A stretch of DNA of 33,467 bases from positions 1 through 33,467 of the forward strand of contig JAJYOK010000029.1 of NCBI GenBank assembly GCA_021796215.1, read 5' to 3'. The notes below the pieces were generated by a model. The model was given only the letters and a program-made list of their open reading frames with translations, made no database searches and was not told the DNA's origin. Of the stretch, positions 1 through 23,391 are shown in pieces. The stretch's first letter is position 1, and each line of letters begins with the position of its first letter. A program made the translations under genes and the position numbers. This stretch comes from Bacteroidota bacterium (lineage in GTDB: Bacteria; Bacteroidota; Ignavibacteria; UBA10030; UBA8401).

Positions 1-469
1 TTATCGGAATGGCGCAAAACGAACACGGGTTGTCGCAGCCTTCAGAAATTTTCAGATAGGCATAGTGGTGCGGCGTAGAAAGCGTGCGCTCGCCGAGAAG
101 ATCGTGTTTGTAATTTCCGCCAAGCGCAGTAACGATTTTCGGCTGTTCGTTCGAGCCAAAAAAACTGCTGACCTCCGGAATTTCTTTTTGCAAATCTGCG
201 TGGTACCGTTCTGAAAGGCATCCCATCACATACACGTGCTCGAGCTTCCCTTGATTCTTCCGCTTCACAGCTTCAAGAATTGTTTCGATGGATTGTTTCT
301 TCGCATCTTCGACGAATCCGCACGTATTGATAATGGCAACGGATGCATTGTCAATATTCTCCGTCACTTCAAAATCATTTCCATGCAGCTGGCTTTGCAG
401 CGCCTCAGAATCAACTTGATTCTTTGCGCAGCCAAGCGTGATGATGTGAATTTTTTTTGTCGGAGTCAA
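1..469 (-). CDS. rimO: Ribosomal protein S12 methylthiotransferase RimO (partial, C-terminus outside window)
   Basis: This is the N-terminal ~156 residues of a methylthiotransferase of the MiaB/RimO radical-SAM family, which adds a methylthio group to Asp89 of ribosomal protein S12. The UPF0004 domain opens with ITLGCAKNQVDSE, carrying the first cluster cysteine, and continues with NTCGFVEDAK and VMGCLSERY, the other two. Near the window edge the radical-SAM cysteine motif reads SEGCDNPCSFCAIPI (CxxxCxxC). The LGCAKN-VDSE wording is more like RimO than MiaB. An in-frame TAA lies just upstream, so the likely start is the TTG at 469-467; no ATG precedes the first motif and no clear ribosome-binding site is visible. 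It sits directly behind the HEPN gene and is probably transcribed with it. Confidence 0.9.
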   Translation of the reverse strand, partial: MTPTKKIHIITLGCAKNQVDSEALQSQLHGNDFEVTENIDNASVAIINTCGFVEDAKKQSIETILEAVKRKNQGKLEHVYVMGCLSERYHADLQKEIPEVSSFFGSNEQPKIVTALGGNYKHDLLGERTLSTPHHYAYLKISEGCDNPCSFCAIPI

Positions 470-475
470 TTGCGT

Positions 476-865
476 TTAAATTAATTGTTTTAATTTAGCT
501 ATCGCTTTGTTCATTGCCATAGAATAATCCGGCAAGAGTTTATAAATTTCTTCCGCGTAATCAACATCGTATGTGTGAACGAGAAGGTTACGCGTGTCAA
601 TCATTTCAAGATACACTCTATCATTGTCGACAGCTCCAAGCTGGAACGCAATTCGCACGCTGTCTTTCGGGGAATTCACAATCAGACCTTTCCCGCGTGC
701 AAACTCACGCAATATTTTCCAAAAAAGTTCAAAGCACAATTCAAAACGAAGAACAGCAGAATCTCTCACAAAAGGATTTTTCACTTCTTTCAAAGCGATT
801 GACAGTTGCTCTGAAATAGCATGAAAACTTTGCAAAAGTTCTATAAGTTTTACGTTCTCGTCCAT
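476..865 (-). CDS. HEPN-type toxin / nucleotidyltransferase substrate-binding protein (HepT-like)
   Basis: This 129-aa all-helical protein resembles the HI0074 nucleotidyltransferase-binding family, part of the HEPN superfamily. The motif RNLLVHTY near residues 92-99 fits RX4HXY, which in studied HepT toxins is the RNase active site plus the tyrosine that the partner AMPylates. All key residues are present, so it looks functional. It directly follows the MNT gene, and together they form a HEPN/MNT (type VII) toxin-antitoxin module. The start is either the ATG at 865 or the TTG at 871, which would overlap the MNT stop codon by 4 bp; coupling is likely in both cases. It could instead be a non-toxic substrate-binding subunit. 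Confidence 0.85.
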   Translation of the reverse strand: MDENVKLIELLQSFHAISEQLSIALKEVKNPFVRDSAVLRFELCFELFWKILREFARGKGLIVNSPKDSVRIAFQLGAVDNDRVYLEMIDTRNLLVHTYDVDYAEEIYKLLPDYSMAMNKAIAKLKQLI

Positions 866-867
866 TG

Positions 868-1188
868 TCAATTTTTAAAAAGGATTTTTGTATGTTGAGC
901 GGCGACTGCTTTAAAACGCTCCGGCGCCTTCGAAAAATCCACAACGTCAATTTTTTGAAGAACAGGTATCTCTTCCAGTTCGTCTTTTAATGCGAAAAAT
1001 TTTCCAATGTCAAGTTTTGATGGCGCAATAATCCCAAAATCGTAGTCTGATGTTGGGTTGTACTTTCCTGAAGCACGCGAGCCGAAAAGGAAAAATTCTG
1101 CACCGCGCACATCTGCAAGATACTTCTGTGCAATTGCTGAAGCTCGTTGCAACACCTCATCGGCATGTAATGGTTTCCGGTAAATCAT
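868..1188 (-). CDS. MNT-type minimal nucleotidyltransferase (MntA-like antitoxin)
   Basis: This small protein (106 aa from the chosen ATG) contains the polymerase-beta-fold nucleotidyltransferase signature GSRASGKYNPTSDYD, which is GS-x10-DxD with the two metal-binding aspartates. A third acidic residue is in the following KIDVVDF strand. In MntA/HepT pairs this enzyme transfers AMP to the HEPN tyrosine and so neutralises the toxin. An earlier in-frame ATG at 1248 would add 20 residues that look unlike the family; the ATG at 1188 has a weak AGG six bases upstream and is preferred. It lies between cdsA and the HEPN gene, so the pair appears to have been inserted between cdsA and rimO. Confidence 0.85.
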   Translation of the reverse strand: MIYRKPLHADEVLQRASAIAQKYLADVRGAEFFLFGSRASGKYNPTSDYDFGIIAPSKLDIGKFFALKDELEEIPVLQKIDVVDFSKAPERFKAVAAQHTKILFKN

Positions 1189-1254
1189 AAGTTGCCTGCG
1201 CAGCCCGGCGTGATGAAGTGATTTTCTCTCGCTTTTTCGGTCATTCATTACTTT

Positions 1255-2214
1255 CTACGACAACACAACAAAATCAATATAAAGATACAAAATCGGTGCA
1301 ACAAATAACAAACTATCGAATCGGTCGAAAACGCCGCCGTGTCCCGGAATAAGATTCGATGAATCTTTCACGCCAGCATCGCGCTTAAACAGCGATTCGA
1401 CCAAATCGCCCAGCTGCCCTGCGGTGCCGATGATAATGCCAATAATGATTGCCTGATGAAGTTTCAAATACGGAAGAAAAAAAATCTGCGCCAAAGACAT
1501 TGTTACAACTGCGGCAATAAATCCCCACAGGGCGCCTTCCCACGTTTTTCCCGGACTGACACGAACGAACAGCTTATGTTTTCCCATAGCCGTCCCGCCG
1601 AAATATGCCGCTGTGTCGCACATCCAGATTGTCGCGAAAATTGCAATCACCGTCATTCCTCCCCACGCGTACGTCGTTGCATGTACGAATTCGTCCGAAT
1701 ATCCTGCGCTGAGATCAAGATGCTGCTGCGTCAACCAGTACGGAAATTCCATGCCGAACAATTCACGCAGCCCCAAAAGCGAACCGGCGAACAATCCTAT
1801 ATAAAAAATGCCGAGAAGAGTATAACCGATATTCACGAACACCGAGCCTTTATTTCGAAAAAGCTCCGTGAGCAAAACAATCACAACAGAAAGAAGAAGA
1901 ACCGTGAAAAGCATTTGCCACTTCGTCATCAGCGAGAGTCCGATTCCGCGATCAACAAAATACGGGAGGATGAAAAACTGCAGTTGCTCATGGAAAAAAG
2001 CCACATTGATGAAGAAAGCGGCTGTCATTCCAATTTCTTTTTGCGGCGACGCGCCTTTCCGCAACGCGAGATCGTAGAACTCGTGCAGCGACAACAATGA
2101 AATACCTGTGACAAAAGTAAAGAACCAAATGCCGCCGTAATAACATGCCAGCACAATTGCCGGAATGGCGACAACGGCAACAAGAACGCGCGAACGAAGA
2201 TTCGATGTACTCAT
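1255..2214 (-). CDS. cdsA: Phosphatidate cytidylyltransferase
   Basis: CdsA makes CDP-diacylglycerol from phosphatidate and CTP in the inner membrane, the branch point of phospholipid synthesis. The 319-residue protein has about eight hydrophobic segments. Near the C-terminus it carries the family signature as SLFKRDAGVKDSSNLIPGHG followed by GVFDRFDS, which includes the KD, PGHGG and DRxD elements. Length is slightly above the usual 270-300 residues. The gene overlaps the preceding zinc-ribbon gene by 4 bp (start ATG inside its end), indicating translational coupling in the long minus-strand unit. Confidence 0.96.
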   Translation of the reverse strand: MSTSNLRSRVLVAVVAIPAIVLACYYGGIWFFTFVTGISLLSLHEFYDLALRKGASPQKEIGMTAAFFINVAFFHEQLQFFILPYFVDRGIGLSLMTKWQMLFTVLLLSVVIVLLTELFRNKGSVFVNIGYTLLGIFYIGLFAGSLLGLRELFGMEFPYWLTQQHLDLSAGYSDEFVHATTYAWGGMTVIAIFATIWMCDTAAYFGGTAMGKHKLFVRVSPGKTWEGALWGFIAAVVTMSLAQIFFLPYLKLHQAIIIGIIIGTAGQLGDLVESLFKRDAGVKDSSNLIPGHGGVFDRFDSLLFVAPILYLYIDFVVLS

Positions 2215-2687
2215 AGACGTTGAATGGTTTCGATGTGAATGAAATCTTCAAGACCTAATTCTGTAAGAATTGTAATAGCATGTGCGCGGTCGTCTTTTAC
2301 GACGAACACCCGTACGGCAGAATCGGCTCTCTCGCTTTTGAAATCAAAAAATTCTTTGGGCGAATACACAAGCGGCAGAATACCGTTCGCTTTCAAATTA
2401 CTGACAATGACGTCGGCTTCGAATTCCGAATCCGATACGCCAAGCAGCGCATGACGATCTAAAAATACGATATGGGTCCCGATATTTCGGGAGCAGAATA
2501 TTTTTTTCTCTTTCGTCACAGCGCAATCGCCGCACACAGGCATTCCGCAGACAACGCAAGCGCCTACCGCAGCGGCACCGGGATGATTGCCACACTCAAT
2601 CTCGGCGATTGTGGAAACCGCTGCACCGCAGTTCAGGCAAAAATGCATTTCTTCTTTTGTCGGACACGAACAATTCGGACAGATCAT
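2211..2687 (-). CDS. Zinc-ribbon/B-box-like protein of unknown function
   Basis: This 158-aa cytosolic protein starts with a zinc ribbon (CPNC at residues 3-6, CLNC at 17-20). A second cysteine/histidine cluster follows at about 32-65 (CGNHP, CVVCGMPVCGDC), resembling a B-box-type zinc finger. The C-terminal ~70 residues (LLGVSDSEFEADVIVSNLKANGI) resemble the ferredoxin-like DUF2007 putative signal-transducing domain, whose typical pattern is movement between N-terminal sequence and LL..aGI. The gene overlaps both neighbours by 4 bp, so it is co-translated with the CPBP protease and cdsA. Function is unknown; the cysteine clusters suggest metal binding. The DUF2007 match is from pattern memory only. 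Confidence 0.75.
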   Translation of the reverse strand: MICPNCSCPTKEEMHFCLNCGAAVSTIAEIECGNHPGAAAVGACVVCGMPVCGDCAVTKEKKIFCSRNIGTHIVFLDRHALLGVSDSEFEADVIVSNLKANGILPLVYSPKEFFDFKSERADSAVRVFVVKDDRAHAITILTELGLEDFIHIETIQRL

Positions 2688-3631
2688 GCGACCGCCTCAG
2701 GTTTTTCCACCGGCTGCAGCGACGACGTCACATGAAGATAGACATACAACGACAGAAGAAATATCAGCGCTGAACCGATCATCATCGTAACAACAACGGA
2801 GAGACCGACATCTTCAGAGCCGAGCAGAAAATTGACTTCGGGTGATAACACGACATTTGCCTGCACGTGCTCGCCAATCACTGAAACAAAGTTGTTGGTA
2901 AAATGAGCAATCATCGGAATCAGAATTGTTTCAGAACGGGAACGAAGAAATCCTAAATAAATGCCGAGTGCGGCGAGCGGCACAAGCAAAAACGGATTGA
3001 GATGATACAGGGCAAAAATGATTCCTGTCCACACAAACCCTTTTGTTTTTGTCGAGGCAAGCGTCAGGTTTTTCTGTATGAGCCCGCGGAACAGTATTTC
3101 TTCGCACACAGCCGGTGTGAGCGCGACGACAAGAAAGACAACGAACAACTCGGGAGTTGAATTCGCATGAACCAGCAGGCGAAATGTTTCTTCAATCACT
3201 TTTTCCACATAATCAACGATCGGTTGAAGCGAGGTCGGCAGCGGAATTTTATCCTGAAGAATCAGGTAACCTTCAAAAAACTGCTCAAGCGAAAAAACTC
3301 CGACAATGGTAAGAAGGATTTCCGCCGTTTTAGGCCTTCGTGTTCCAAGGACGGAAGCGGCACTGCCATTCTGCCATCGCATCAAAAACCATGTTGGGAG
3401 CAGAAGGAAAAGTATTTGCGCGGCGAACGTTGACCACCGCATCACCGCAGCATTATCCTGCGTTACAGATGAACCGAAGAAAAACACCGTAAGGGCGCCG
3501 CCGATAAGCTGATACAAAACAAAAATTCCGATAAGCGCGATGACCGCGAAGCCCAGCGGCTGCATTCGCGGGTACGATACGGCAGGCGGTACCGTGACTG
3601 AATTATTTTCGTCCGTCAAAAGATCAGGCAT
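2684..3631 (-). CDS. CPBP family intramembrane glutamic endopeptidase
   Basis: This is a polytopic membrane protein of the CPBP/Abi family (relatives of the CAAX prenyl protease Rce1). Three diagnostic motifs are visible in the 315-aa form. They are CEEILFRG (E177, E178, R182), FALYHLNP (H210) and IAHFTNNF (H243), which together form the catalytic Glu/His site in the membrane. Seven or so hydrophobic segments are present. An upstream in-frame ATG at 3664 would give an implausible 41-bp overlap with the preceding gene. The ATG at 3631 leaves an 8-bp overlap and is preferred. The substrate is unknown; roles in protein maturation or bacteriocin immunity are known for relatives. Confidence 0.88.
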   Translation of the reverse strand: MPDLLTDENNSVTVPPAVSYPRMQPLGFAVIALIGIFVLYQLIGGALTVFFFGSSVTQDNAAVMRWSTFAAQILFLLLPTWFLMRWQNGSAASVLGTRRPKTAEILLTIVGVFSLEQFFEGYLILQDKIPLPTSLQPIVDYVEKVIEETFRLLVHANSTPELFVVFLVVALTPAVCEEILFRGLIQKNLTLASTKTKGFVWTGIIFALYHLNPFLLVPLAALGIYLGFLRSRSETILIPMIAHFTNNFVSVIGEHVQANVVLSPEVNFLLGSEDVGLSVVVTMMIGSALIFLLSLYVYLHVTSSLQPVEKPEAVA

Positions 3632-15713: not shown

Positions 15714-15870
15714 GCTGCCTCCTGTTCTTGATGAATGGGTTTGAGTTGATACTTATTACAGGGGCAATATATCTATGGCTCTCTTAAGCGCACCTAAAAA
15801 GTTTCTTAGAAATTGCTTAAAGGCAAAGAATTAAATTATAGAACGTTTCAATGCCTGAGTATTGCCATTC

Positions 15871-16097
15871 CGTCATTCTCTTCTTGAAATCTATCTTCCC
15901 CTTTCCTCATTCGAAGCATAAACTGTAGCCGGGGCCGCTGACCTCGGCAATCCGGCATCAACGATGCCCGCTGCAATCGCTTTCGTCATTCTCTTCCTGA
16001 AATTTATCTTTTCCCCTTCCTCATTCGAAGAATAAACTGTAGCAGGGGTCGCTGACCTCGGCAATCCGGCATCAACGATGCCCGCTGCAATCGCTTT
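15871..16097. repeat. Two tandem copies of a ~114-bp repeat
   Basis: Copy 1 is 15871-15983 and copy 2 is 15984-16097, about 90% identical, followed by the start of a third copy (CGTCATTCTC at 16098). Because 114 is a multiple of three, the minus strand stays open across both copies and would encode a repeated TKAIAAGIVDAGLPRS peptide. I regard that reading as a by-product and not a gene. The remaining intergenic DNA (15714-15870) shows no gene. Confidence 0.85.
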
Positions 16098-16116
16098 CGT
16101 CATTCTCCGATACGCT

Positions 16117-16268
16117 TGCCTGTAGGCACGGACGCACGTCCGGGCATTCTCTCGAAATGTTCAGACGATTTTCTGTCTGCTCCGCCCTTCGGCGGACTTG
16201 CACGGTTACTGCTTGCATTGCGTTACTTCAGTGTGTAATTTGTGAAGTAACGGGAAGGTCTTGCGACC
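16117..16268. repeat. Cluster of five perfect hairpins in non-coding DNA
   Basis: In 152 bases there are TGCC/GGCA (16117-16128), GGACG/CGTCC (16130-16141), CAGAC/GTCTG (16162-16179), TCCGCC/GGCGGA with a CTTC loop (16181-16196) and CGTTACTTCA/TGAAGTAACG (16221-16252). A short GGTC/GACC follows at 16257-16268. The density suggests a structured RNA, a compound palindromic repeat or a recombination site. No coding frame is evident between 15714 and 16323. Confidence 0.6.
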
Positions 16269-16323
16269 GTTCTTACACTATAAAATATACCACTACCGGA
16301 CTTTAACCCAACACGAGAATGGC

Positions 16324-16548
16324 ATGCAAACTTCTGTTGTAACAACAAACGGACGTATCACCGTACCGGCAAAACTACGGCGCAAACTAAAAATGAAACC
16401 GGGAACAAAACTTGTCGTCATCGAACAGGAAGGCGGCTTTGTTGTGAAACCGCTCAACAAAAAATATTTTGAAAGCCTTGCCGGAATTTTGCCTGCAAAA
16501 GGAAAAGCTTCAAGAGCGCTTCTCAAAGATCGGCGAACCGAAAGGTAA
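16324..16548 (+). CDS. AbrB/MazE/SpoVT-domain antitoxin-like protein (orphan)
   Basis: This 74-aa protein has the swapped-hairpin DNA-binding fold of AbrB/MazE: VVTTNGRITVPAKLRRKLKMKPGTKLVVIEQEGGFVVKPL. These proteins usually repress their own operon and neutralise a PIN or MazF toxin encoded just downstream. No toxin gene follows here, and the C-terminus (ALLKDRRTER) stops shortly after the place where such antitoxins continue, so it may be a remnant. The in-frame ATG at 16261 lies in the hairpin region and is rejected. Confidence 0.82.
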   Translation: MQTSVVTTNGRITVPAKLRRKLKMKPGTKLVVIEQEGGFVVKPLNKKYFESLAGILPAKGKASRALLKDRRTER

Positions 16549-16831
16549 AGGACGCTTGTTTCGTTGCAGGATTGGCAATGATGATAGAAAAGTGCTGACG
16601 TCGCTATCAGCAATAAAGAATTAAACGGTGGAAAATAAGAAAAGAGGTAATCTTTTAGTCTTAATGAAACCACCCAATTATAAAGTTCTGTTCTATGGAT
16701 AAGTAATTGTAGTAAGCAAAAACGTAGGTGGTTTTGTGTATTGTGGTCCTTTTTATTACCTTTGTGCTAAACATAATGTGACAAAACTTATTAGAGGATC
16801 AAGAAAAGCCTCGACTACCACCCTCACTATT
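16549..16831. other. Non-coding left flank of the restriction-like cassette
   Basis: I see no supported gene here. Composition shifts to AT-rich. AAACCACC (16667-16674) and GGTGGTTT (16727-16734) form an 8-bp inverted repeat 52 bases apart. The Vsr frame is open back to 16736, but those codons do not resemble the family. Confidence 0.5.
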
Positions 16832-17350
16832 ATGCACTCGCTAATAACTTTGGCCATTACAACTAGAACTATTATTAAAACGCTAGCAAGGGAATCTCAA
16901 ACGGGACGAGTCAAGACACGATTCCCTTCTTTTGCTGACTTGAAGCCAGCGTCGGTCGTAAGCTCACGCACAAAGAAATCCAATCGAAGCCAAGGAACAA
17001 AACATGAATTGCTCTTAATGCGAGAATTAAAACATATTGGACTTCATTTTAAGCATCACGTAAAAAATCTACCGGGCAAGCCAGATATAGTTTTTCCGCG
17101 GCAGCAAGTTATTATTTTTTGCGACGGAGACTTTTGGCATGGGCGAAACTGGCGAGCACGGTGGCATAAGTTAATAAAAGGAACAAATGGAAAATATTGG
17201 AAAGCAAAAATTGGTAGTAACATTGAGCGAGATAAAATCGTAAATGAAACTTTAAAAACTCTTGGATGGAAAGTCGTTAGAGTGTGGGAAACAGATATAA
17301 AATCACACACCCAAAAAATTGCACAACAAATATTCAGAGCTGTCAAATGA
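16832..17350 (+). CDS. Vsr-like (very short patch repair) endonuclease
   Basis: This is a PD-(D/E)XK-fold nuclease of the Vsr family. E. coli Vsr nicks next to T:G mismatches arising from deamination of 5-methylcytosine. Visible landmarks are GTKHELLL (E59), LPGKPDIVFPRQQVIIF with the metal-binding D85, DFWHGR (H103), KYWKAKI and GWKVVRVWETDI. Where E. coli Vsr has its zinc cysteines (HGCFWHHHHC and WEC), this protein has CDGDFWHGRNW and WET, so the structural zinc site is absent. The start is uncertain; ATG 16832 is the nearest ATG before the FPSFADLKPAS motif. The stop overlaps the ParB-like gene by ATGA. The cassette includes a cytosine methyltransferase, the expected partner. Confidence 0.85.
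   Translation: MHSLITLAITTRTIIKTLARESQTGRVKTRFPSFADLKPASVVSSRTKKSNRSQGTKHELLLMRELKHIGLHFKHHVKNLPGKPDIVFPRQQVIIFCDGDFWHGRNWRARWHKLIKGTNGKYWKAKIGSNIERDKIVNETLKTLGWKVVRVWETDIKSHTQKIAQQIFRAVK
16888..16928. repeat. 9-bp perfect inverted repeat at the 5' end of the vsr gene
   Basis: AAGGGAATC (16888-16896) and GATTCCCTT (16920-16928) are perfect reverse complements separated by 23 bases. The position near the uncertain Vsr start suggests an operator or a translation-controlling hairpin. It also encodes part of the Vsr N-terminus in the present model. Confidence 0.55.
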
Positions 17351-18543
17351 AAAAAGAAAAATCAATGATTGCAGGCTTAGGGCGAAAACGCCCTCAAATT
17401 GATATTCCAATTTCGTTGATCGAATTGGACAATCAAAATCCAAGATTACCGGATGAATGTCAGGGTGGATCACAATTAGATATTATGCAAGTTCTGCTAC
17501 GTGAGTTTGATCTTGAAGAATTAGCCTTTTCAATGGCAGAAAACGGTTATTTTGATGAAGAGCCTATCGTGGTTGTCCCAAAAAAATTGCCAAGTAAATT
17601 CAGTTTAAATTCTGGTAAAGCAGTAGAAGAAACGGAGCGAGAACTTGAACAGTTAATAGCTGATGGAAAAATCTCATTTACTGCTGTAGAGGGTAACCGT
17701 CGCACTGCAACTGCAAAATTATTGGTTGATGAAGCATGGAAATCCCAAATAAAAACTAACTCGGATTTTCCTGTTCCACGCAATAATGCTGTTGTAGAAG
17801 ATTTATTAAAAATCCCTGCCATTTGCTACGGAAATAGAAGTGAGGTATCACCATATCTTGGAGTTAGGCATATTGCTGGTATAATGAAGTGGGATGCGTT
17901 TGCAAAAGCCAGATATATTTCATCTATGATCGAACAAGAAGCGAAGATTCATAATAAAAATATTGAGGAGGGGGTTCGCGAAGTTCAAAGACAGATTGGC
18001 GATAGATCAGATTCAATTAAACGCCAGTATCTTTATTACAAGATTCTTGAGCAAGCTCATGACGATACATCGTTTGACGTTAAGCCTGCAACAAAAAGAT
18101 TCTCCCTAATTACAGTTGCATTTAATTATCCATCGATTAGAGAATTTATCGGAGTTCCATCTTACAAAGCACTTGATGTTAATAAAACTCTTGTTCCTAA
18201 GAAAAAACTAGAAAATCTCGAAACACTTTTGACTTGGATGTATGGTAATGGTAAGGATAAGTCTCCTATTCTTACTGATTCTCGAAATATCGGTAAATTA
18301 TTGGCTCCTGTGTTAGCAGACAGGGAAGCAACGGAATATTTAGTAAAGTACGGAAATTTACAGGAAGCATACGATAGAAGTGGCGGAGATAAAATATTTC
18401 TCATGAAAAAATTAAACGATGCTAAAAGAAATTTATCCTATGCTCTTACTGTTGCCTTTAAATATAAAAAGGATAAAGAAGCTGTTTCATTGTTAAAAGA
18501 TTGTTCAGATGTCCTTTCCGAACTTGAAAAAACATTATCATAA
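17347..18543 (+). CDS. ParB-like nuclease-domain protein of a restriction-like cassette
   Basis: This 398-aa protein starts with a ParB/Srx-type domain. The segment SLIELDNQNPRLP followed by LEELAFSMAENGYFDEEPI resembles ParB box I, and VEGNRRTATAKLL (residues 114-126) matches the GxRR nucleotide-binding box II. ParB relatives bind CTP and DNA, and some act as nucleases. The C-terminal ~270 residues are mostly helical with no recognised motif; no helix-turn-helix is obvious. It overlaps vsr by ATGA and ends 3 bases before the putative endonuclease gene, so it is part of a single transcription unit. It may give DNA binding or a CTP-dependent switch to the cassette; this is inference. Confidence 0.7.
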   Translation: MKKEKSMIAGLGRKRPQIDIPISLIELDNQNPRLPDECQGGSQLDIMQVLLREFDLEELAFSMAENGYFDEEPIVVVPKKLPSKFSLNSGKAVEETERELEQLIADGKISFTAVEGNRRTATAKLLVDEAWKSQIKTNSDFPVPRNNAVVEDLLKIPAICYGNRSEVSPYLGVRHIAGIMKWDAFAKARYISSMIEQEAKIHNKNIEEGVREVQRQIGDRSDSIKRQYLYYKILEQAHDDTSFDVKPATKRFSLITVAFNYPSIREFIGVPSYKALDVNKTLVPKKKLENLETLLTWMYGNGKDKSPILTDSRNIGKLLAPVLADREATEYLVKYGNLQEAYDRSGGDKIFLMKKLNDAKRNLSYALTVAFKYKKDKEAVSLLKDCSDVLSELEKTLS

Positions 18544-18546
18544 TTT

Positions 18547-19377
18547 ATGGAACCAATAAATACGGATTCTATTTATTCGTTAGCTGATTGGAGCGAGTTT
18601 TTAGTTATACACAATCAGCAAGAGTTATCAAAGGCAAAATTGGCTTCTATGCTGAATGTTAATCGGGGTAGTATAGATGAAGAGCAGATTGATAGTATAT
18701 TCACTGAACTTAGTAGAAGACACTTGCTTTATGGTGAATACTCGCCTTTTAAGCTTAATAATGATGTTTTGATCCCTAACTTGTCGTGGCAAGATTACCC
18801 AGAATATATGATGTGTCTTATTTTTTCGTTAAGAGGAGTTGAAAAACGAAAAGGTACAAACGATGGGACAAAATTATTCGAACGTTTATCAAGGGAAGCT
18901 ATTATATCATATTTAAGCCCTACCGCTGAGGTAATTGGTTTTCCCAATGCCCAATCCCTTGCAAAACAAATTGAAGACATTTCGAAAAAAACCTGTGAAA
19001 GATTAGGTTCACGAAAAGTCAAACCAAAAGACAAGGATAAGGGTGTAGATATAATTGCGTGGAAGTCTCATGGTGATTTAAGAGATAATCAGATTGTGTT
19101 GCTTCTTCAATGTGGTGCGGGATTGCATTTTGGATTAAAAAAACCAATTTCATTGCCCGCTTGGTGTGAATTCATACAGTGGTCTGCTAGACCAATACCC
19201 GGAATTATAATACCAATTATTGTTTCAATAGATGATTGGATTGAGGTTCGTGATGATTACAATTTGGTTTTTGATCGCGTAAGGATTTATCGTGCTTTAA
19301 CAGGAAGAGATCTTGCAGATCAAAGTTTGCGTGCTGAAATGTTAGGGTGGTGTAAGACAAAGTTGAATGAACAATGA
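18547..19377 (+). CDS. Putative restriction endonuclease (PD-(D/E)XK-like)
   Basis: This 276-aa protein has no firm family name from my reading. The central segment KDKGVDIIAW (D168) followed by QIVLLLQCGAG (Q188) and FGLKK (K198/K199) fits a PD-(D/E)XK core in which Q replaces the usual acidic residue. LFERLSREAI (E112) could be the N-terminal helix glutamate. A QC..G..(W/F)...K pattern occurs in other predicted nucleases near methyltransferases. The N-terminal ~80 residues are helical and may be a DNA-recognition domain. The last codons overlap the methyltransferase start by ATGA, so this is the likely cutting partner. Confidence 0.6.
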   Translation: MEPINTDSIYSLADWSEFLVIHNQQELSKAKLASMLNVNRGSIDEEQIDSIFTELSRRHLLYGEYSPFKLNNDVLIPNLSWQDYPEYMMCLIFSLRGVEKRKGTNDGTKLFERLSREAIISYLSPTAEVIGFPNAQSLAKQIEDISKKTCERLGSRKVKPKDKDKGVDIIAWKSHGDLRDNQIVLLLQCGAGLHFGLKKPISLPAWCEFIQWSARPIPGIIIPIIVSIDDWIEVRDDYNLVFDRVRIYRALTGRDLADQSLRAEMLGWCKTKLNEQ

Positions 19378-20726
19378 AGTTTATCGATTTATTTGCAGGC
19401 ATTGGTGGCTTTCATAAAGCCTTAAAAGAATTAGGGCACGCTTGTGTGTTTGCTAGTGAAATTGATCCCGTGTTGCAAAATGTCTATGAAAAATCATGGG
19501 GAATGAAACCACATGGTGATATAAGAAAAATTGTTAGAGAGAATATTGATCTAATACCCGAGCACGATATTCTTTGCGCGGGTTTTCCATGTCAGCCTTT
19601 TTCAAAAGCAGGTAAACAAGAAGGAACGGAAGATACAATAAGAGGTAACTTGCTTAATGAAATTGTAAAGATTCTTAATTACAGAAAGCCAAATTATTTC
19701 ATTCTTGAAAATGTTCCTCATCTGGCAAGACACAATGACGAGGAAACGTGGAAAAAGATGAAGGCAAAACTCGTCGGAGCGGGCGATGGTTATTTCGTTG
19801 ATCAAAAAATTTATTCCCCTCATGAATTTGGTATTCCTCAACATCGTAAAAGAATCTTTATCGTCGGTAGTAAAGTAGGATTATCTCATTTCAAATGGTT
19901 GGAGCCACCTCAAACAAAGGTAAGCGTTGATAGTGTTATTGAGGCAAAGCCCGCGATTATAAAAGAAATTGGTAAAGATGAAAAAGAATGTCTCAAGATT
20001 TGGCAGGAGTTCATCGAGGCTATTCCAGAGAACATAAAACTACCCGGCTTTCCTATTTGGGCAATGGAATTTGGAGCAACCTATCCTTATGAGAGAGAAT
20101 ATCCACATAAAATTCGCTCAACTAACTTAGCGGAGTACAAAGGCAGCTTTGGTTGTAGCTTAAAAAACTTGACGAAAAGCCAACAGATGAAGTGCTTGCC
20201 GAGCTATGCCACTGTTAAGCATACATTCCCTGACTGGAAACGACGCTATATCCGAGAGAATAGGAAGTTTTATTCTGATAATAAAAAAGATATTGAGGAT
20301 ATTGTCAAACGAATCGCGTCATTCAAATTTCAAAGTTGGCAAAAACTTGAATGGAATGTTGGCGAGAGCAAAAGAAAGATTTCTGAATATATAATTCAAT
20401 TCAGAGCATCGGGAATCCGAATTAAACAACCAGATTTTTTCCCGTCACTGGTTTGCCCCACAACACAAATACCAATTATTGGTTGGCAAAATAGATACAT
20501 AACAAAAAATGAGGGACTGAAACTTCAATCACTTGAGGGCGTAACGCTTCCTAGTAATGACAATGCAGCGTTTAAGGCTTTAGGTAATGCAGTCAACGCA
20601 GAGATTGTAAAAAGGATTGCTGAAAAATTGTTCCTCGAATGGCCAGCCACAAAAATTATTGATTTGCACAAACCAGTAAGAGATACTATTCATTCCAAAG
20701 ACAAAGCGATTCGAGCATTTGCCTAA
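19374..20726 (+). CDS. DNA (cytosine-5-)-methyltransferase
   Basis: This 450-aa enzyme transfers a methyl group from SAM to C5 of cytosine in a specific site. Motif I is FAGIGGF (7-13), motif IV is GFPCQPFS with catalytic Cys73, and motif VI is ENV (112-114). Motif VIII is PQHRKRIFIVG, and motif X is ALGNAVNAEIV near the C-terminus. The long variable part between VIII and IX-X determines the recognition site, which I cannot predict. Its ATG overlaps the putative endonuclease gene by 4 bp. Its place with Vsr and an endonuclease-like gene suggests a restriction-modification role and not an orphan regulator. Confidence 0.95.
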   Translation: MKFIDLFAGIGGFHKALKELGHACVFASEIDPVLQNVYEKSWGMKPHGDIRKIVRENIDLIPEHDILCAGFPCQPFSKAGKQEGTEDTIRGNLLNEIVKILNYRKPNYFILENVPHLARHNDEETWKKMKAKLVGAGDGYFVDQKIYSPHEFGIPQHRKRIFIVGSKVGLSHFKWLEPPQTKVSVDSVIEAKPAIIKEIGKDEKECLKIWQEFIEAIPENIKLPGFPIWAMEFGATYPYEREYPHKIRSTNLAEYKGSFGCSLKNLTKSQQMKCLPSYATVKHTFPDWKRRYIRENRKFYSDNKKDIEDIVKRIASFKFQSWQKLEWNVGESKRKISEYIIQFRASGIRIKQPDFFPSLVCPTTQIPIIGWQNRYITKNEGLKLQSLEGVTLPSNDNAAFKALGNAVNAEIVKRIAEKLFLEWPATKIIDLHKPVRDTIHSKDKAIRAFA

Positions 20727-20736
20727 TTTTATACCT

Positions 20737-20951
20737 CGCTTCCCCAAAATGTTGTACACAAAAAGCAAAAACACCCTATGTCAAAACCATACGAAGAAAA
20801 ACCGCTCCTCATCAAATGCCCCAACTGCAAGCAGACGCACGAGCCGGATTACATCGAAACAACGCAGCGATACATCTGTCCCATCTGTGCTGAGCCGCTC
20901 GGTGCGCAGGTCGTCATCGAAAAAAAGAAACGCGGAATGAAATAACTCTCT
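20737..20951. repeat. Direct repeat A carrying a zinc-ribbon gene copy
   Basis: This segment matches 22974-23191. Both begin CGCTTCCCC.AAATGTTGTACAC, have a short divergent stretch before the ATG, and are then nearly identical to the shared TAACTCTCT. It starts 11 bases after the methyltransferase stop. Its right end is exactly where the rhuM reading frame starts to look normal (20952). Confidence 0.9.
20778..20945 (+). CDS. Small zinc-ribbon protein, copy A
   Basis: This 55-aa protein (MSKPYEEKPLLIKCPNC start) has two CPxC knuckles, CPNC at 14-17 and CPIC at 34-37, so it probably binds one zinc. It differs from copy B at 23018 by two residues (S2/A and G42/D). The base in front of the ATG lacks the AAAGGA ribosome-binding site that copy B has, so it may be poorly expressed or silent. 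No function is known; a basic tail (EKKKRGMK) could contact nucleic acid. Confidence 0.75.
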   Translation: MSKPYEEKPLLIKCPNCKQTHEPDYIETTQRYICPICAEPLGAQVVIEKKKRGMK

Positions 20952-21284
20952 GGTCGCCCAGATTCTGAACTGCGTCCCTCGTTTTGATTTAACTCTATAC
21001 CCAACCGAAATGATAACGTCAAGGTTGTAGTACTGCGTCTTATATATTTTCCCGTCTGCCGCAGTATGTAAGAAATCCTTACATACTGACTTTTTCTCCA
21101 ATTCCTTTTCCTTAAAAATATTCCCGATATGTTGTGTAATTGCCACACGATCTCTGCCAAACAATGCCGCCATTTGCGCCTGATTCAGCCACACAGTCTC
21201 ATTTTCCAGACGGACATTAATTGCTTCTTTCCCGTCCTGAGTTTTGTAAATAATTACTTCGCCTTTATCGGATCGGCTTTTCAT
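20952..21284 (-). pseudogene. rhuM-family gene, 3'-truncated
   Basis: The first 111 codons match the RhuM family (virulence/cell filamentation-type N-terminal domain). Landmarks are the helix-turn-helix-like VWLNQAQMAALFGRDRVAIT, HIGNIFKEKEL, QYYNLDVIISVGYRVKSKRG and TQFRIWAT. In intact members about 200 more residues follow. Here homology stops at the ACC codon ending at 20952, exactly at the border of direct repeat A; the frame then runs antisense through the zinc-ribbon gene to 20781. The chimeric protein is unlikely to be functional. RhuM genes are often carried by mobile or defence islands. Confidence 0.82.
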
Positions 21285-21473
21285 GTAATCAGTTTGTTCT
21301 AAAGGTTTTTATTCTCATTCCCAAATCCATCGCTCACCGCGCAATCATCCTCAACACGCCACAAAGTACATTTTCCATTTTTCAATTGCAACAAAATTAC
21401 ACGCATCCCCCCATTCCCGCTCCGCGTTGACAAACCGCAGAACGGGAAACAGAGGGAATGTTTTTTTTCTTTC

Positions 21474-22154
21474 TTACTTCACCGGCGGTTCAGCCGGCGG
21501 AGCTTCCGTCTTTCCTGCGGATCTTCCCGCAGGTATCGGCTCGAACTCCGTCAGTATCTCCGGGCTATCCTCGAAGACCGACTTCGCCGAGCTGCGGACC
21601 TTCCGCATCAGCTTCTTCAGATCATCAACCGCCGCATCGCGCGCTTTGGTCGCGTTCTTCCGAAGCTTCTTTGCGTTTTCCTGCTCCGCATCCGCTTTCG
21701 TTAGATCAACGGAAGAGGTGCCTAACAGCGCGATCGTCGCATCGGTAATGCCGTGCTTGCCAAGCTCGGCAAGATGTGCCTGCGCCGGGGTTTTAAGATA
21801 CTCCAGCTCGGCATTGATCCCTTTTACCGTGTTCGGGATTTTGCTGCCGACATGGAATTCTCTCATCCGCACCTTGTCCTCTTCCCCAAACTCCGCCTTC
21901 GCCCCGTTCTGCACTTTGCGGATTAGGGTGAACGCTTTCTCCAGCTTTATATTCTGGATGTTCGTCAGGTCATCCACCGTCTGTACTGCCCTTTGCTGCA
22001 GGGTGTTGTTCAGACTGCAGGTTTCTATTTCCGCCTTAAGGTCGGCGGCGAGGCTTGCCGCTATGCCTGTTTCTGCAGGCGGCGATGCATACTTCTCGGC
22101 AACACCGAGAAGAACGTTTCCTTTTTGGAGAACGTCATTCGCTTCTTCTGTCAT
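21474..22154 (-). CDS. Helical protein of unknown function
   Basis: This 226-aa, almost wholly alpha-helical protein has many Ala/Lys/Glu/Asp residues and no signal peptide or membrane segment. Coiled-coil-like stretches lie at about 145-200 (SSVDLTKADAEQENAKKLRK and following). The C-terminus is proline-rich (GKTEAPPAEPPVK) and contains PAGRSAG, encoded by a palindrome at 21514-21533. I do not recognise the family. It lies between two copies of the zinc-ribbon gene, alongside the truncated rhuM, in a repeat-rich accessory region. The region 21285-21473 downstream holds nothing I can identify. Confidence 0.6.
   Translation of the reverse strand: MTEEANDVLQKGNVLLGVAEKYASPPAETGIAASLAADLKAEIETCSLNNTLQQRAVQTVDDLTNIQNIKLEKAFTLIRKVQNGAKAEFGEEDKVRMREFHVGSKIPNTVKGINAELEYLKTPAQAHLAELGKHGITDATIALLGTSSVDLTKADAEQENAKKLRKNATKARDAAVDDLKKLMRKVRSSAKSVFEDSPEILTEFEPIPAGRSAGKTEAPPAEPPVK
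21514..21533. repeat. Palindromic element inside the helical-protein gene
   Basis: CCTGCGG (21514-21520) and CCGCAGG (21527-21533) flank a 6-base loop. In frame it encodes PAGRSAG, similar to the LPAGQ-AG insertions in the TPR gene at 25104 and 26156. Confidence 0.55.
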
Positions 22155-22346
22155 GTGTACCTCCGTTGATATTGTTATGAGTTGATTGTGATGTGCCGCA
22201 GAGGCGGCATTTCAATTTCTTTGTACTTGTCATTCCGGCATGTTCTTAGCCGTAATCCCATTCTCTCCCTCATGGCTGCAAGCCCGCCGGCTTCTTGGCG
22301 AAGGGAGATTAAGAGCGGGGTCAGGCACCGCTCCTCAAAATCCGCG

Positions 22347-22640
22347 AAAATAGCACATTTCGGCAGGAAAATCCGATTTCCCGCACGGATAATTCAATTT
22401 CCCGGACGGAAAATCCAATTTCCTGCACGGATAATCCAATTTCCCGGAAGGTTTGTCACATTTCCCGGACAGTTTGTCCAATACCCCGGGCGGATAATCC
22501 AATTTCCCGGACGGATTATCCAATTTCCCGGACGGATAATTCAATTTCCCGGTCGGATAATTCAATTTCCCGGACGGTTTGTTCCATTTCCAGGACGGAT
22601 TATCCCTTCCGAAAACCGGATTATGCGGTTTCCCGGATAA
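22347..22640. repeat. 21-bp tandem repeat array, ~14 units
   Basis: The consensus unit is ATAATCCAATTTCCCGGACGG, with variants that start TTTGT, ATTAT or AAAAT. The two outer units are the most degenerate. Since 21 is a multiple of three, the frames stay open on both strands: the plus strand would read repeated RIIQFPG and the minus strand repeated GKLDYPS heptapeptides. Neither frame has a convincing start and ribosome-binding site. It lies about 190 bases upstream of the helical-protein gene on the minus strand. Confidence 0.9.
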
Positions 22641-22973
22641 ACCATTTCAAAGTTGAAACGGATCATCATTCGCCCGGTGCTTCTTCTCTCTTTAGCACAG
22701 AGAAAATACGCGGGCGCAGAAAAAAATGTGAATGCAGCGGTAAATAAGCGTGGCGGGTAATAAGCCTTCCGACAACCTCTCTGTAACCATCTTTCCGATG
22801 GCTCTTTCCACCATTAGGTTGCTCCGCGGGCTGAACAAGACCCCGGGGTAACTCTTCGCATGAGGTTACAATACGGTTTTTCACGAAAAATGTCAACCGT
22901 TTTTTGCGAAATTTTTACATTTTTTATTTTCATAGCGGCAATGACTGCCGCCTGAAATTTCCTGCCGCTTGTT
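22641..22973. other. Intergenic segment without recognisable gene
   Basis: This segment contains a short hairpin (CCATC/GATGG at 22787-22801) and AT-rich sequence near 22890-22935. I see no supported coding region, RNA gene or mobile-element end. Confidence 0.4.
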
Positions 22974-23191
22974 CGCTTCCCCGAAATGTTGTACACTGAA
23001 TGAAAAAAGGAAGCCCGATGGCAAAACCATACGAAGAAAAACCGCTCCTCATCAAATGCCCCAACTGCAAGCAGACGCACGAGCCGGATTACATCGAAAC
23101 AACGCAGCGATACATCTGTCCCATCTGTGCTGAGCCGCTCGATGCGCAGGTCGTCATCGAAAAAAAGAAACGCGGAATGAAATAACTCTCT
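22974..23191. repeat. Direct repeat B carrying a zinc-ribbon gene copy
   Basis: This is the partner of 20737-20951; the gene part differs at only two bases. After the shared TAACTCTCT the two copies diverge at once. The two repeats lie in the same orientation about 2.2 kb apart, so recombination between them could delete the intervening genes. Confidence 0.9.
23018..23185 (+). CDS. Small zinc-ribbon protein, copy B
   Basis: This 55-aa protein (MAKPYEEKPLLIKCPNC start) has CPNC and CPIC knuckles 20 residues apart and a basic tail. The ATG at 23018 follows AAAAGGA with six bases between, a good ribosome-binding site; the frame is open back to an ATG at 23000, which would place the site inside the gene. 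Copy B is probably the original, expressed version. Function unknown. Confidence 0.8.
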   Translation: MAKPYEEKPLLIKCPNCKQTHEPDYIETTQRYICPICAEPLDAQVVIEKKKRGMK

Positions 23192-23198
23192 CCGGCAT

Positions 23199-23267
23199 CG
23201 TCATTCTGAACGAAATGAAGAATCCATCTACTTCGCTGATGCTCAGCTCCGAAGTAGTCCGTCGGAC
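23199..23267. repeat. Dispersed-repeat-like hairpin element
   Basis: The sequence CGTCATTCTGAACGAAATG followed by AAGAATCC resembles a widespread intergenic element in many genomes (antisense reading ILHFVQND). CTACTTCG (23228-23235) pairs with CGAAGTAG (23250-23257), and GTCCGTCGGAC (23257-23267) forms a second small hairpin. Confidence 0.55.
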
Positions 23268-23391
23268 ACGACAGATGTGCAACATTTTTCTTAAAGAAAA
23301 GCATAAAAGAATTCACACGCCTCTTTACTTTCCTCCCTTCCTGTCTCTTCATTGATTGAAACCGAAATTAGTGGTATCTTACCCGCTGGAG

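What the first reader, a model, noticed from the sequence alone, without database searches (positions are those of the whole stretch)
16832..20726. Candidate new four-gene restriction/defence cassette: Vsr-like, ParB-like, PD-(D/E)XK-like, C5 methyltransferase
Four same-strand genes overlap (ATGA twice) or are 3 bases apart, are visibly AT-richer than both flanks, and end 11 bases before a direct repeat. A methyltransferase with Vsr is known; addition of a ParB-box protein and a QCGAG-type nuclease is not a combination I can name. Structure and overlap are seen; a defence role is inference.
Basis: partly seen in the sequence, partly recalled or inferred. Interest (0 to 1): 0.75.

Follow-up and report, generated by a model that had tools for sequence, protein, structure and literature searches.

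The report
ParB-guided restriction-modification-like defence cassette
Four neighbouring bacterial genes form what looks like a DNA-cutting defence system in which a DNA-clamp-type protein (ParB-like) is always paired with a nuclease and accompanied by a DNA-methylating enzyme; the same unnamed module occurs in hundreds of bacteria and in E. coli prophages, but nobody seems to have described or tested it.

Summary
Four same-strand genes, Vsr (16832-17350), ParB-like (17347-18543), winged-helix PD-(D/E)XK (18547-19377) and C5 methyltransferase (19374-20726), overlap or lie 3 bp apart, at 36.9% GC against about 47.7% around them. They sit in a ~7.5 kb insert absent from one congener; another congener carries a different Vsr-C5 MTase pair beside the same AbrB-type gene.

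The core is the ParB-nuclease pair. In 80 relatives found by ParB, 73 have the nuclease directly downstream (72/73 gaps <=20 nt). Nine of nine intact loci found by the nuclease have the ParB upstream. The two co-diverge (r=0.87), and 65/73 have a C5, D12 or N6/N4 MTase nearby. Vsr is optional, but a genome of the same order has the same four genes in the same order. The module fills the P2-prophage defence hotspot in E. coli genomes and is present in phage Wphi.

Predicted folds are confident: ParB/KorB-type NTPase clamp, and winged helix plus restriction-enzyme fold with a relocated but always present lysine. Pfam, PADLOC, NCBIfam and PHROGs do not name the pair; PD-lambda-5 and GmrSD are distant relatives.

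Best reading: a modular R-M-like system with a ParB-nuclease effector. Defence activity is inferred, not shown.

The parts
16832..17350 (+). Vsr-type mismatch endonuclease (start codon uncertain; conserved domain ~16964-17296)
   Evidence: TIGR00632 112.4 bits vs cut-off 97.85; E. coli Vsr 1cw0 E 2.8e-15; D of 'GKPDIV' kept, the FTHGCFWHHHHC zinc/active-site stretch is FCDGDFWHGRNW here
17347..18543 (+). ParB-like protein: N-terminal ParB/Srx NTPase fold (about residues 16-180, Box II EGNRR at 115-119), helical/HTH DNA-binding region, helical C-terminus
   Evidence: AlphaFold pLDDT 94.1; KorB 8qa9 Z 9.7 over 204 residues, ParB 7bnr Z 9.3, Noc 7nfu Z 8.8; D28, N31, R33 and E115-R119 invariant in 74 sequences
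18547..19377 (+). Winged helix (residues ~6-79) + PD-(D/E)XK nuclease domain (~100-265); predicted active site E112, D168, Q188, K198
   Evidence: AlphaFold pLDDT 94.6; MspJI, BsmI, BsaWI, SdaI, FokI matches at Z 6.4-7.1; lysine at 190 or 198, never both or neither, in 72/72
19374..20726 (+). C5-cytosine DNA methyltransferase, motifs intact (GFPCQPFSKAGKQ, ENV, QHRKR); the only C5 MTase found in the held genome
   Evidence: PF00145 6e-63; HhaI 4e-40; one match in G000
15823..23347 (.). Genomic insert holding the cassette; absent in congener G395, where the flanks 15822 and 23348 lie 69 bp apart
   Evidence: blastn of window vs L162

Best explanation
The cassette is a restriction-modification-like defence system with a two-protein effector. 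Steps: (1) the C5 methyltransferase marks host DNA at its own site [family knowledge; site unknown]; (2) Vsr repairs the T:G mismatches that deaminated 5-methylcytosine leaves [family knowledge]; (3) the ParB-like protein binds a nucleotide and loads onto DNA, probably as a KorB/ParB-type clamp, and delivers or licenses the winged-helix PD-(D/E)XK protein, which cuts DNA lacking the mark [inferred from fold, obligate pairing and partner choice]. Shown here: gene content, fold predictions, the obligate ParB-nuclease pairing, the repeated MTase partnership, match between pair lineage and MTase chemistry, selection on all three genes in E. coli, and residence in mobile-element defence sites. Inferred: nucleotide use, cutting, self/non-self discrimination by methylation, and anti-phage activity.
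For: Pairing: nuclease directly downstream of ParB in 73/80 genome loci, 72/73 gaps <=20 nt, and in 39/44 viral contigs; from the nuclease side, all 9 intact loci (window included) have ParB upstream. Co-divergence r=0.87, 0 of 2000 permutations. Partner: DNA MTase in 65/73 loci, same strand within 200 bp in 52; in 55 of these 65 no MORC/Z1/DUF4420/NotI restriction gene was found in the locus, so the pair is the obvious candidate restriction component there. Lineage match: pairs with C5 MTases and pairs with adenine-type MTases fall in largely separate clades, 5 label changes. Same MTase, different pair: Wphi and 12474III MTases are 98% identical while ParB is 34% and nuclease 26% identical, as if the pair moves as a unit. 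Active nuclease: every one of 72 members keeps exactly one lysine, at 190 or at 198; restriction-enzyme fold. Clamp fold: KorB Z 9.7. Site: between portal and replication-endonuclease genes of P2-like prophages, the hotspot named in PMC9519451. dN/dS 0.03-0.04 in E. coli copies.
Against: No biochemistry, methylome or phage data. The ParB Box III residues of true CTPases are not evident, so nucleotide and clamp action are unproven. About 9 loci carry the pair beside MORC-Z1-DUF4420 modules and 4 beside NotI genes, which fits an accessory role as well. The lysine swap has only one or two origins on the tree, so its strength is conservation, not repeated events. The adenine clade switches between D12 and N6/N4 MTases several times, which a strictly site-specific nuclease would not tolerate easily.
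Confidence: 0.6

Rival explanations
1. The ParB-nuclease pair is a backup (guard) module attached to complete R-M systems: it senses failed or inhibited restriction, or MTase loss, and then degrades DNA or kills the cell, as PrrC-like or Abi add-ons do.
For: The pair also sits beside full restriction sets: MORC-Z1-DUF4420 and NotI, and beside PD-lambda-5_A/_B pairs in L042, L057, L088, L093. PD-lambda-5 was described as a compacted 'RM+Abi' system (PMC9519451). HEPN family MAE_28990 was listed as 'in operon with a ParB nuclease and DNA methylase genes' (PMC3710099).
Against: In 55 of 65 MTase-bearing loci no other restriction gene of the searched kinds is present, and in the window only Vsr is. 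The nuclease has a DNA-restriction fold, not an RNase fold.
Confidence: 0.25
2. The winged-helix nuclease is modification-dependent (type IV-like): it attacks incoming DNA carrying a foreign modification, and the MTase serves another purpose such as competing for sites.
For: Closest sequence-plus-fold matches include the modification-dependent MspJI and AspBHI, and winged helices fused to nucleases can read N6-methyladenine (PMC11037411).
Against: No SRA/PUA reader domain in the model. Those enzymes rarely have MTase neighbours (section heading in PMC11037411), whereas this pair has them in 65/73 loci. A 5mC-dependent cutter beside a 5mC writer would be self-destructive unless specificities differ.
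Confidence: 0.1
3. Chance neighbours: an orphan C5 MTase with Vsr next to an unrelated ParB-like plasmid or phage maintenance gene and a hypothetical gene.
For: Orphan MTase-Vsr pairs are common, and another congener has a Vsr-C5 MTase pair beside the same AbrB gene.
Against: Tight gene overlaps, the same four-gene order in another family of the order, and MTase association across many phyla and in phages.
Confidence: 0.03

Closest known systems
PD-lambda-5 (Vassallo et al. 2022, PMC9519451)
   Same: ParB-type N-terminal region is homologous (hhalign 99.9%, E 4e-32, 216 columns); works with a DNA MTase; prophage setting; PADLOC PD-Lambda-5_B is the very D12 MTase that sits beside some of these pairs
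   Different: PD-lambda-5_A is longer (450-505 aa) with an unrelated C-terminus, no separate winged-helix nuclease, and a D12 instead of a C5 MTase; nuclease profile vs PD-lambda-5_A: no match (0.4%)
GmrSD / DUF262 type IV enzymes (PMC4619093, PMC12373910)
   Same: ParB-fold NTPase coupled to a nuclease, sometimes as two genes
   Different: DUF262 not detected here; HNH/DUF1524 nuclease instead of PD-(D/E)XK; no MTase; they cut modified phage DNA
MORC-Z1 C5-MTase R-M systems (Iyer 2008, PMC2292703)
   Same: C5 MTase of the window is ~64% identical to the one next to MORC-Z1-DUF4420 in L018; Vsr is a frequent companion
   Different: No MORC, Z1 or DUF4420 gene in the window; the ParB-nuclease pair is in their place
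PADLOC candidate PDC-M38A
   Same: N-terminal ParB part aligns (profile 88-357 of 715)
   Different: PDC-M38A carries a second half, which by its matches looks like an ATPase (my reading); here the second gene is a winged-helix nuclease
Orthodox type II R-M with Vsr (Dcm/EcoRII-like)
   Same: C5 MTase + Vsr + a PD-(D/E)XK protein
   Different: The candidate REase is obligately paired with a ParB-fold protein and belongs to no REase family in Pfam or PADLOC

Membership tests
PD-lambda-5 | PD-Lambda-5_A protein matched over its full length | tested here: not met
   Best profile 48.6 bits in short N-terminal stretches; homology limited to 216 columns; a true member (L042) gives 443.7 bits over its full length
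PD-lambda-5 | PD-Lambda-5_B = D12 adenine MTase | tested here: not met
   Window MTase is C5 (PF00145); no D12 gene among window ORFs with the local model
Type II restriction-modification | DNA MTase gene adjacent to an REase-fold gene | tested here: met
   ATGA-overlapping genes; REase fold
Type II restriction-modification | Intact PD-(D/E)XK catalytic residues | tested here: inconclusive
   D168 and Q188 present; canonical lysine position 190 is G, but K198 is present and substitutes in 58/72 members
Type II restriction-modification | REase and MTase recognise the same DNA site; methylation protects | not testable with these tools
   Needs methylome and digestion assays
ParB/KorB CTPase-fold proteins | ParB/Srx fold with Box I and Box II motifs | tested here: met
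   KorB Z 9.7/204 residues, rmsd 4.3; ParB Z 9.3/94 residues, rmsd 2.3; D28, N31, R33 and EGNRR invariant in 74; EGNRR instead of GERR
ParB/KorB CTPase-fold proteins | Nucleotide binding/hydrolysis and DNA clamp loading | not testable with these tools
   Needs DRaCALA/crosslinking; PMC12704722 shows such folds can take CTP, ATP or GTP
GmrSD/DUF262 | DUF262 (PF03235) domain | tested here: not met
   No Pfam match for the ParB-like protein at E<=1
MORC-Z1 R-M | MORC-type GHKL ATPase and Z1 helicase genes | tested here: not met
   No hit among window ORFs with models built from L018-L097
Vsr | Vsr family profile above curated cut-off | tested here: met
   112.4 vs 97.85 bits
Vsr | Zinc-site Cys/His of E. 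coli Vsr (C66, H71, C73; numbering from memory) | tested here: not met
   THGCFWHHHHC aligns with CDGDFWHGRNW: a non-zinc Vsr variant

The most novel reading that the evidence does not exclude
A distinct class of restriction in which a ParB-family nucleotide-switched DNA clamp, not a helicase or a self-contained endonuclease, selects the DNA and hands it to a separate winged-helix PD-(D/E)XK nuclease. The module can be attached to cytosine- or adenine-methylating MTases, which would supply the self/non-self code.
Probability: 0.35. Interest if true: 0.88.

Novelty: new variant of a known kind. Interest (0 to 1): 0.74.

Why it matters
If right, it adds an unnamed, widespread restriction module to the defence catalogue. 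447 ParB relatives were found in one scan of 84,980 species genomes, and ParB-nuclease-MTase cassettes were found in at least 103 of 5,426 complete E. coli genomes. It would also give ParB-type molecular switches a job in immunity and explain three genes of a classic P2-family phage (Wphi orf98, orf96, mth). It is directly testable in E. coli K-12 with a cassette that already exists in a laboratory phage.

Tried and rejected
Filing it as PD-lambda-5: rejected on both defining proteins. GmrSD/DUF262: no Pfam match. PDC-M38: only the ParB half matches; its profile's second half hits ATPase-like genes everywhere (146/198 genomes), which made that family search useless as a presence test. The flanking repeat as cassette boundary: it bounds the next block instead. 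Is the nuclease hidden in the PD-lambda-5_A C-terminus? No. Sequence search of the pair against PDB gave nothing meaningful, so fold comparison was used. The nuclease alone found no phage or plasmid by tblastn, and a single-sequence IMG/VR scan found none; the ParB alignment was needed. Literature searches for ParB + MTase + nuclease systems returned no description of this pair; the library lacks most subscription journals, so a prior report (for example in the P2-hotspot literature) cannot be excluded. Promoter/terminator scans were uninformative.

Full report
WHAT IS THERE. Four open frames on the + strand were confirmed: Vsr 16832-17350, ParB-like 17347-18543, nuclease-like 18547-19377, C5 MTase 19374-20726. 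The junctions are ATGA, a 3-bp gap, ATGA. GC is 36.9% against 47.7% (s.d. 1.8%) for equal stretches outside. The MTase is the only C5 MTase found in the held genome. The cassette lies in a ~7.5 kb segment missing from congener G395, where window positions 15822 and 23348 are 69 bp apart. In congener G200 the same AbrB-type gene (window 16261-16548) is followed by a different Vsr + C5 MTase pair. So the site behaves as an exchange point for R-M genes; this is an inference from three genomes.

WHAT THE PROTEINS ARE. Vsr passes the curated TIGR00632 cut-off but lacks the zinc-site pattern of E. coli Vsr. The MTase is closest to HhaI among solved structures, and its catalytic motifs are intact. 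The two middle proteins are unnamed. The second has no Pfam family and only weak PD-Lambda-5_A/PDC-M38A hits. The third has nothing above cut-off in Pfam or NCBIfam and only one weak PADLOC hit (LmuA, E 0.007, winged-helix region). PHROGs places them in phrog_3694 and phrog_14650/3984, all 'unknown function'. Models built on 74 and 72 relatives are confident (pLDDT 94.1 and 94.6). The ParB-like protein aligns with KorB (Z 9.7, 204 residues, rmsd 4.3), ParB and Noc. The nuclease-like protein is a winged helix followed by a restriction-enzyme domain resembling BsmI, MspJI, BsaWI, SdaI and FokI (Z 6.4-7.1). By the tool's own note such Z values alone are middling, but several unrelated REases cover the same domain, and Foldseek gives MspJI probability 0.99.

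ACTIVE SITE. In 72 homologues D168 is invariant and E112, D164, Q188, C189, G192 and D243 are nearly so; R244 and R246 are invariant. The lysine two residues after Q188, expected for a QxK site, is present in only 14. The other 58, including the window, have lysine at 198. No sequence has both and none has neither. On a ParB tree this needs two changes. I read it as one or two relocations of the catalytic lysine with constant need for it, which argues for an active enzyme (inference).

THE REAL UNIT IS A PAIR. A genome scan with the ParB alignment found 447 relatives; the best 80 were fetched. Of these, 73 have the nuclease homologue directly downstream, with gap <=20 nt in 72/73. The rest include short contigs and broken copies. 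In the reverse direction, nuclease hits across the phylum gave nine intact loci (the window among them) besides contig-end and degraded ones, and all nine have ParB upstream. In viral contigs 39/44 ParB loci have the nuclease. Pairwise distances of ParB and nuclease correlate at 0.87 (0/2000 permutations; n=70). Those of ParB and C5 MTase correlate at 0.52 (n=27).

THE METHYLTRANSFERASE IS A MODULE. Of 73 pairs, 65 have a C5, D12 or N6/N4 MTase in the locus, 52 on the same strand within 200 bp; in 55 no MORC, Z1, DUF4420 or NotI gene is present. Partners identified by Pfam/PADLOC: D12 = PD-Lambda-5_B, N6_N4 = PF01555, MORC-Z1-DUF4420, NotI. On the pair tree, C5-linked and adenine-linked pairs separate, with five label changes overall and several D12/N6N4 swaps. 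In P2-like phages nearly identical MTases (98%) go with very different pairs (ParB 34%, nuclease 26%).

VSR IS OPTIONAL. Six of the 80 loci have a Vsr gene, all in loci of the C5 class. The same four-gene order as in the window occurs in G483, same order but a different family (Vsr 54%, ParB 28%, nuclease 26%, MTase 49%).

DEFENCE CONTEXT. 251 E. coli genomes have a match, and 103 of 5,426 have a place covering at least 80% of the cassette query; all are chromosomal. In SMS-3-5 it lies between the portal and replication-endonuclease genes of a P2-like prophage, as in phages 12474III and Wphi. PMC9519451 reports defence systems in exactly that interval. E. coli copies show dN/dS of 0.03-0.04 for all three genes (the dS values are large and approximate). 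RefSeq names the genes ParB N-terminal domain protein, hypothetical protein and DNA cytosine methyltransferase.

HOW IT MOST LIKELY WORKS. The MTase marks self. The ParB-fold protein, by analogy with KorB/ParB, binds a nucleotide and encircles or bridges DNA and delivers the winged-helix nuclease to unmarked DNA. Vsr limits mutation at 5mC. Only the gene content, folds, pairing and contexts are shown; every functional step is inferred. The main rival is a guard/Abi module riding on R-M systems. It is favoured by the loci that also carry MORC-Z1 or NotI genes, and disfavoured by the majority in which the pair is the only candidate effector.

KNOWN OR NOT. It is not PD-lambda-5 by two failed tests, although the ParB region is clearly related, and it is not GmrSD. 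The 2013 HEPN survey noted ParB + methylase operons with a HEPN protein. The 2025 ParB-fold survey (PMC12704722) discusses fusions to MTase and HNH domains; the passages I read do not describe this two-gene pair. No open paper in the library described it, but subscription papers could not be searched. I therefore rate it a new variant of a known kind (R-M-like), with a real chance of being a mechanistically new class.

Noticed in passing
G200:C106 (locus L161:4646-6131): In a congener the AbrB-type gene equivalent to window 16261-16548 is followed by a different Vsr + C5 MTase pair, with a NGCFWHGHTC-type (zinc-like) Vsr: the site looks like an R-M exchange point.
   Followed up: partly
window 20736-20951 and 22973-23191: A ~216-bp direct repeat (94%; 98% over 178 bp), found only twice in the genome, flanks a 2.2 kb block with a RhuM-like fragment; its role is unknown.
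   Followed up: partly
window 22319-22647: About 11 copies of a 21-bp tandem repeat encode a RIIQFPG-type heptapeptide on the + strand ORF 22182-22640; possibly a non-coding variable repeat.
   Followed up: no
window 15896-15993 and 16010-16107: A 98-nt direct repeat (95%) lies just upstream of the AbrB-type gene, near the left end of the insert.
   Followed up: no
L042, L057, L088, L093: PD-lambda-5_A-like and D12 MTase (_B-like) gene pairs lie directly beside a ParB-nuclease pair, two related ParB proteins in one locus; suggests PD-lambda-5 and this module work together or share an origin.
   Followed up: partly
L065:3-2120: ParB protein with an extra ~355-residue N-terminal region of unknown nature fused to it.
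   Followed up: no
L196 (G630:C218) 129-3384: C5 MTase - ParB - 262-aa protein - Vsr: same layout but the third gene is not recognised by the nuclease model; possible effector replacement.
   Followed up: no
E. coli NZ_CP173544.1 and NZ_CP196168.1 (hits H21, H22): The cassette is interrupted by an IS5-family element in two genomes; in G207:C52 and G258:C82 the nuclease gene is broken by stops: loss of the effector recurs.
   Followed up: no
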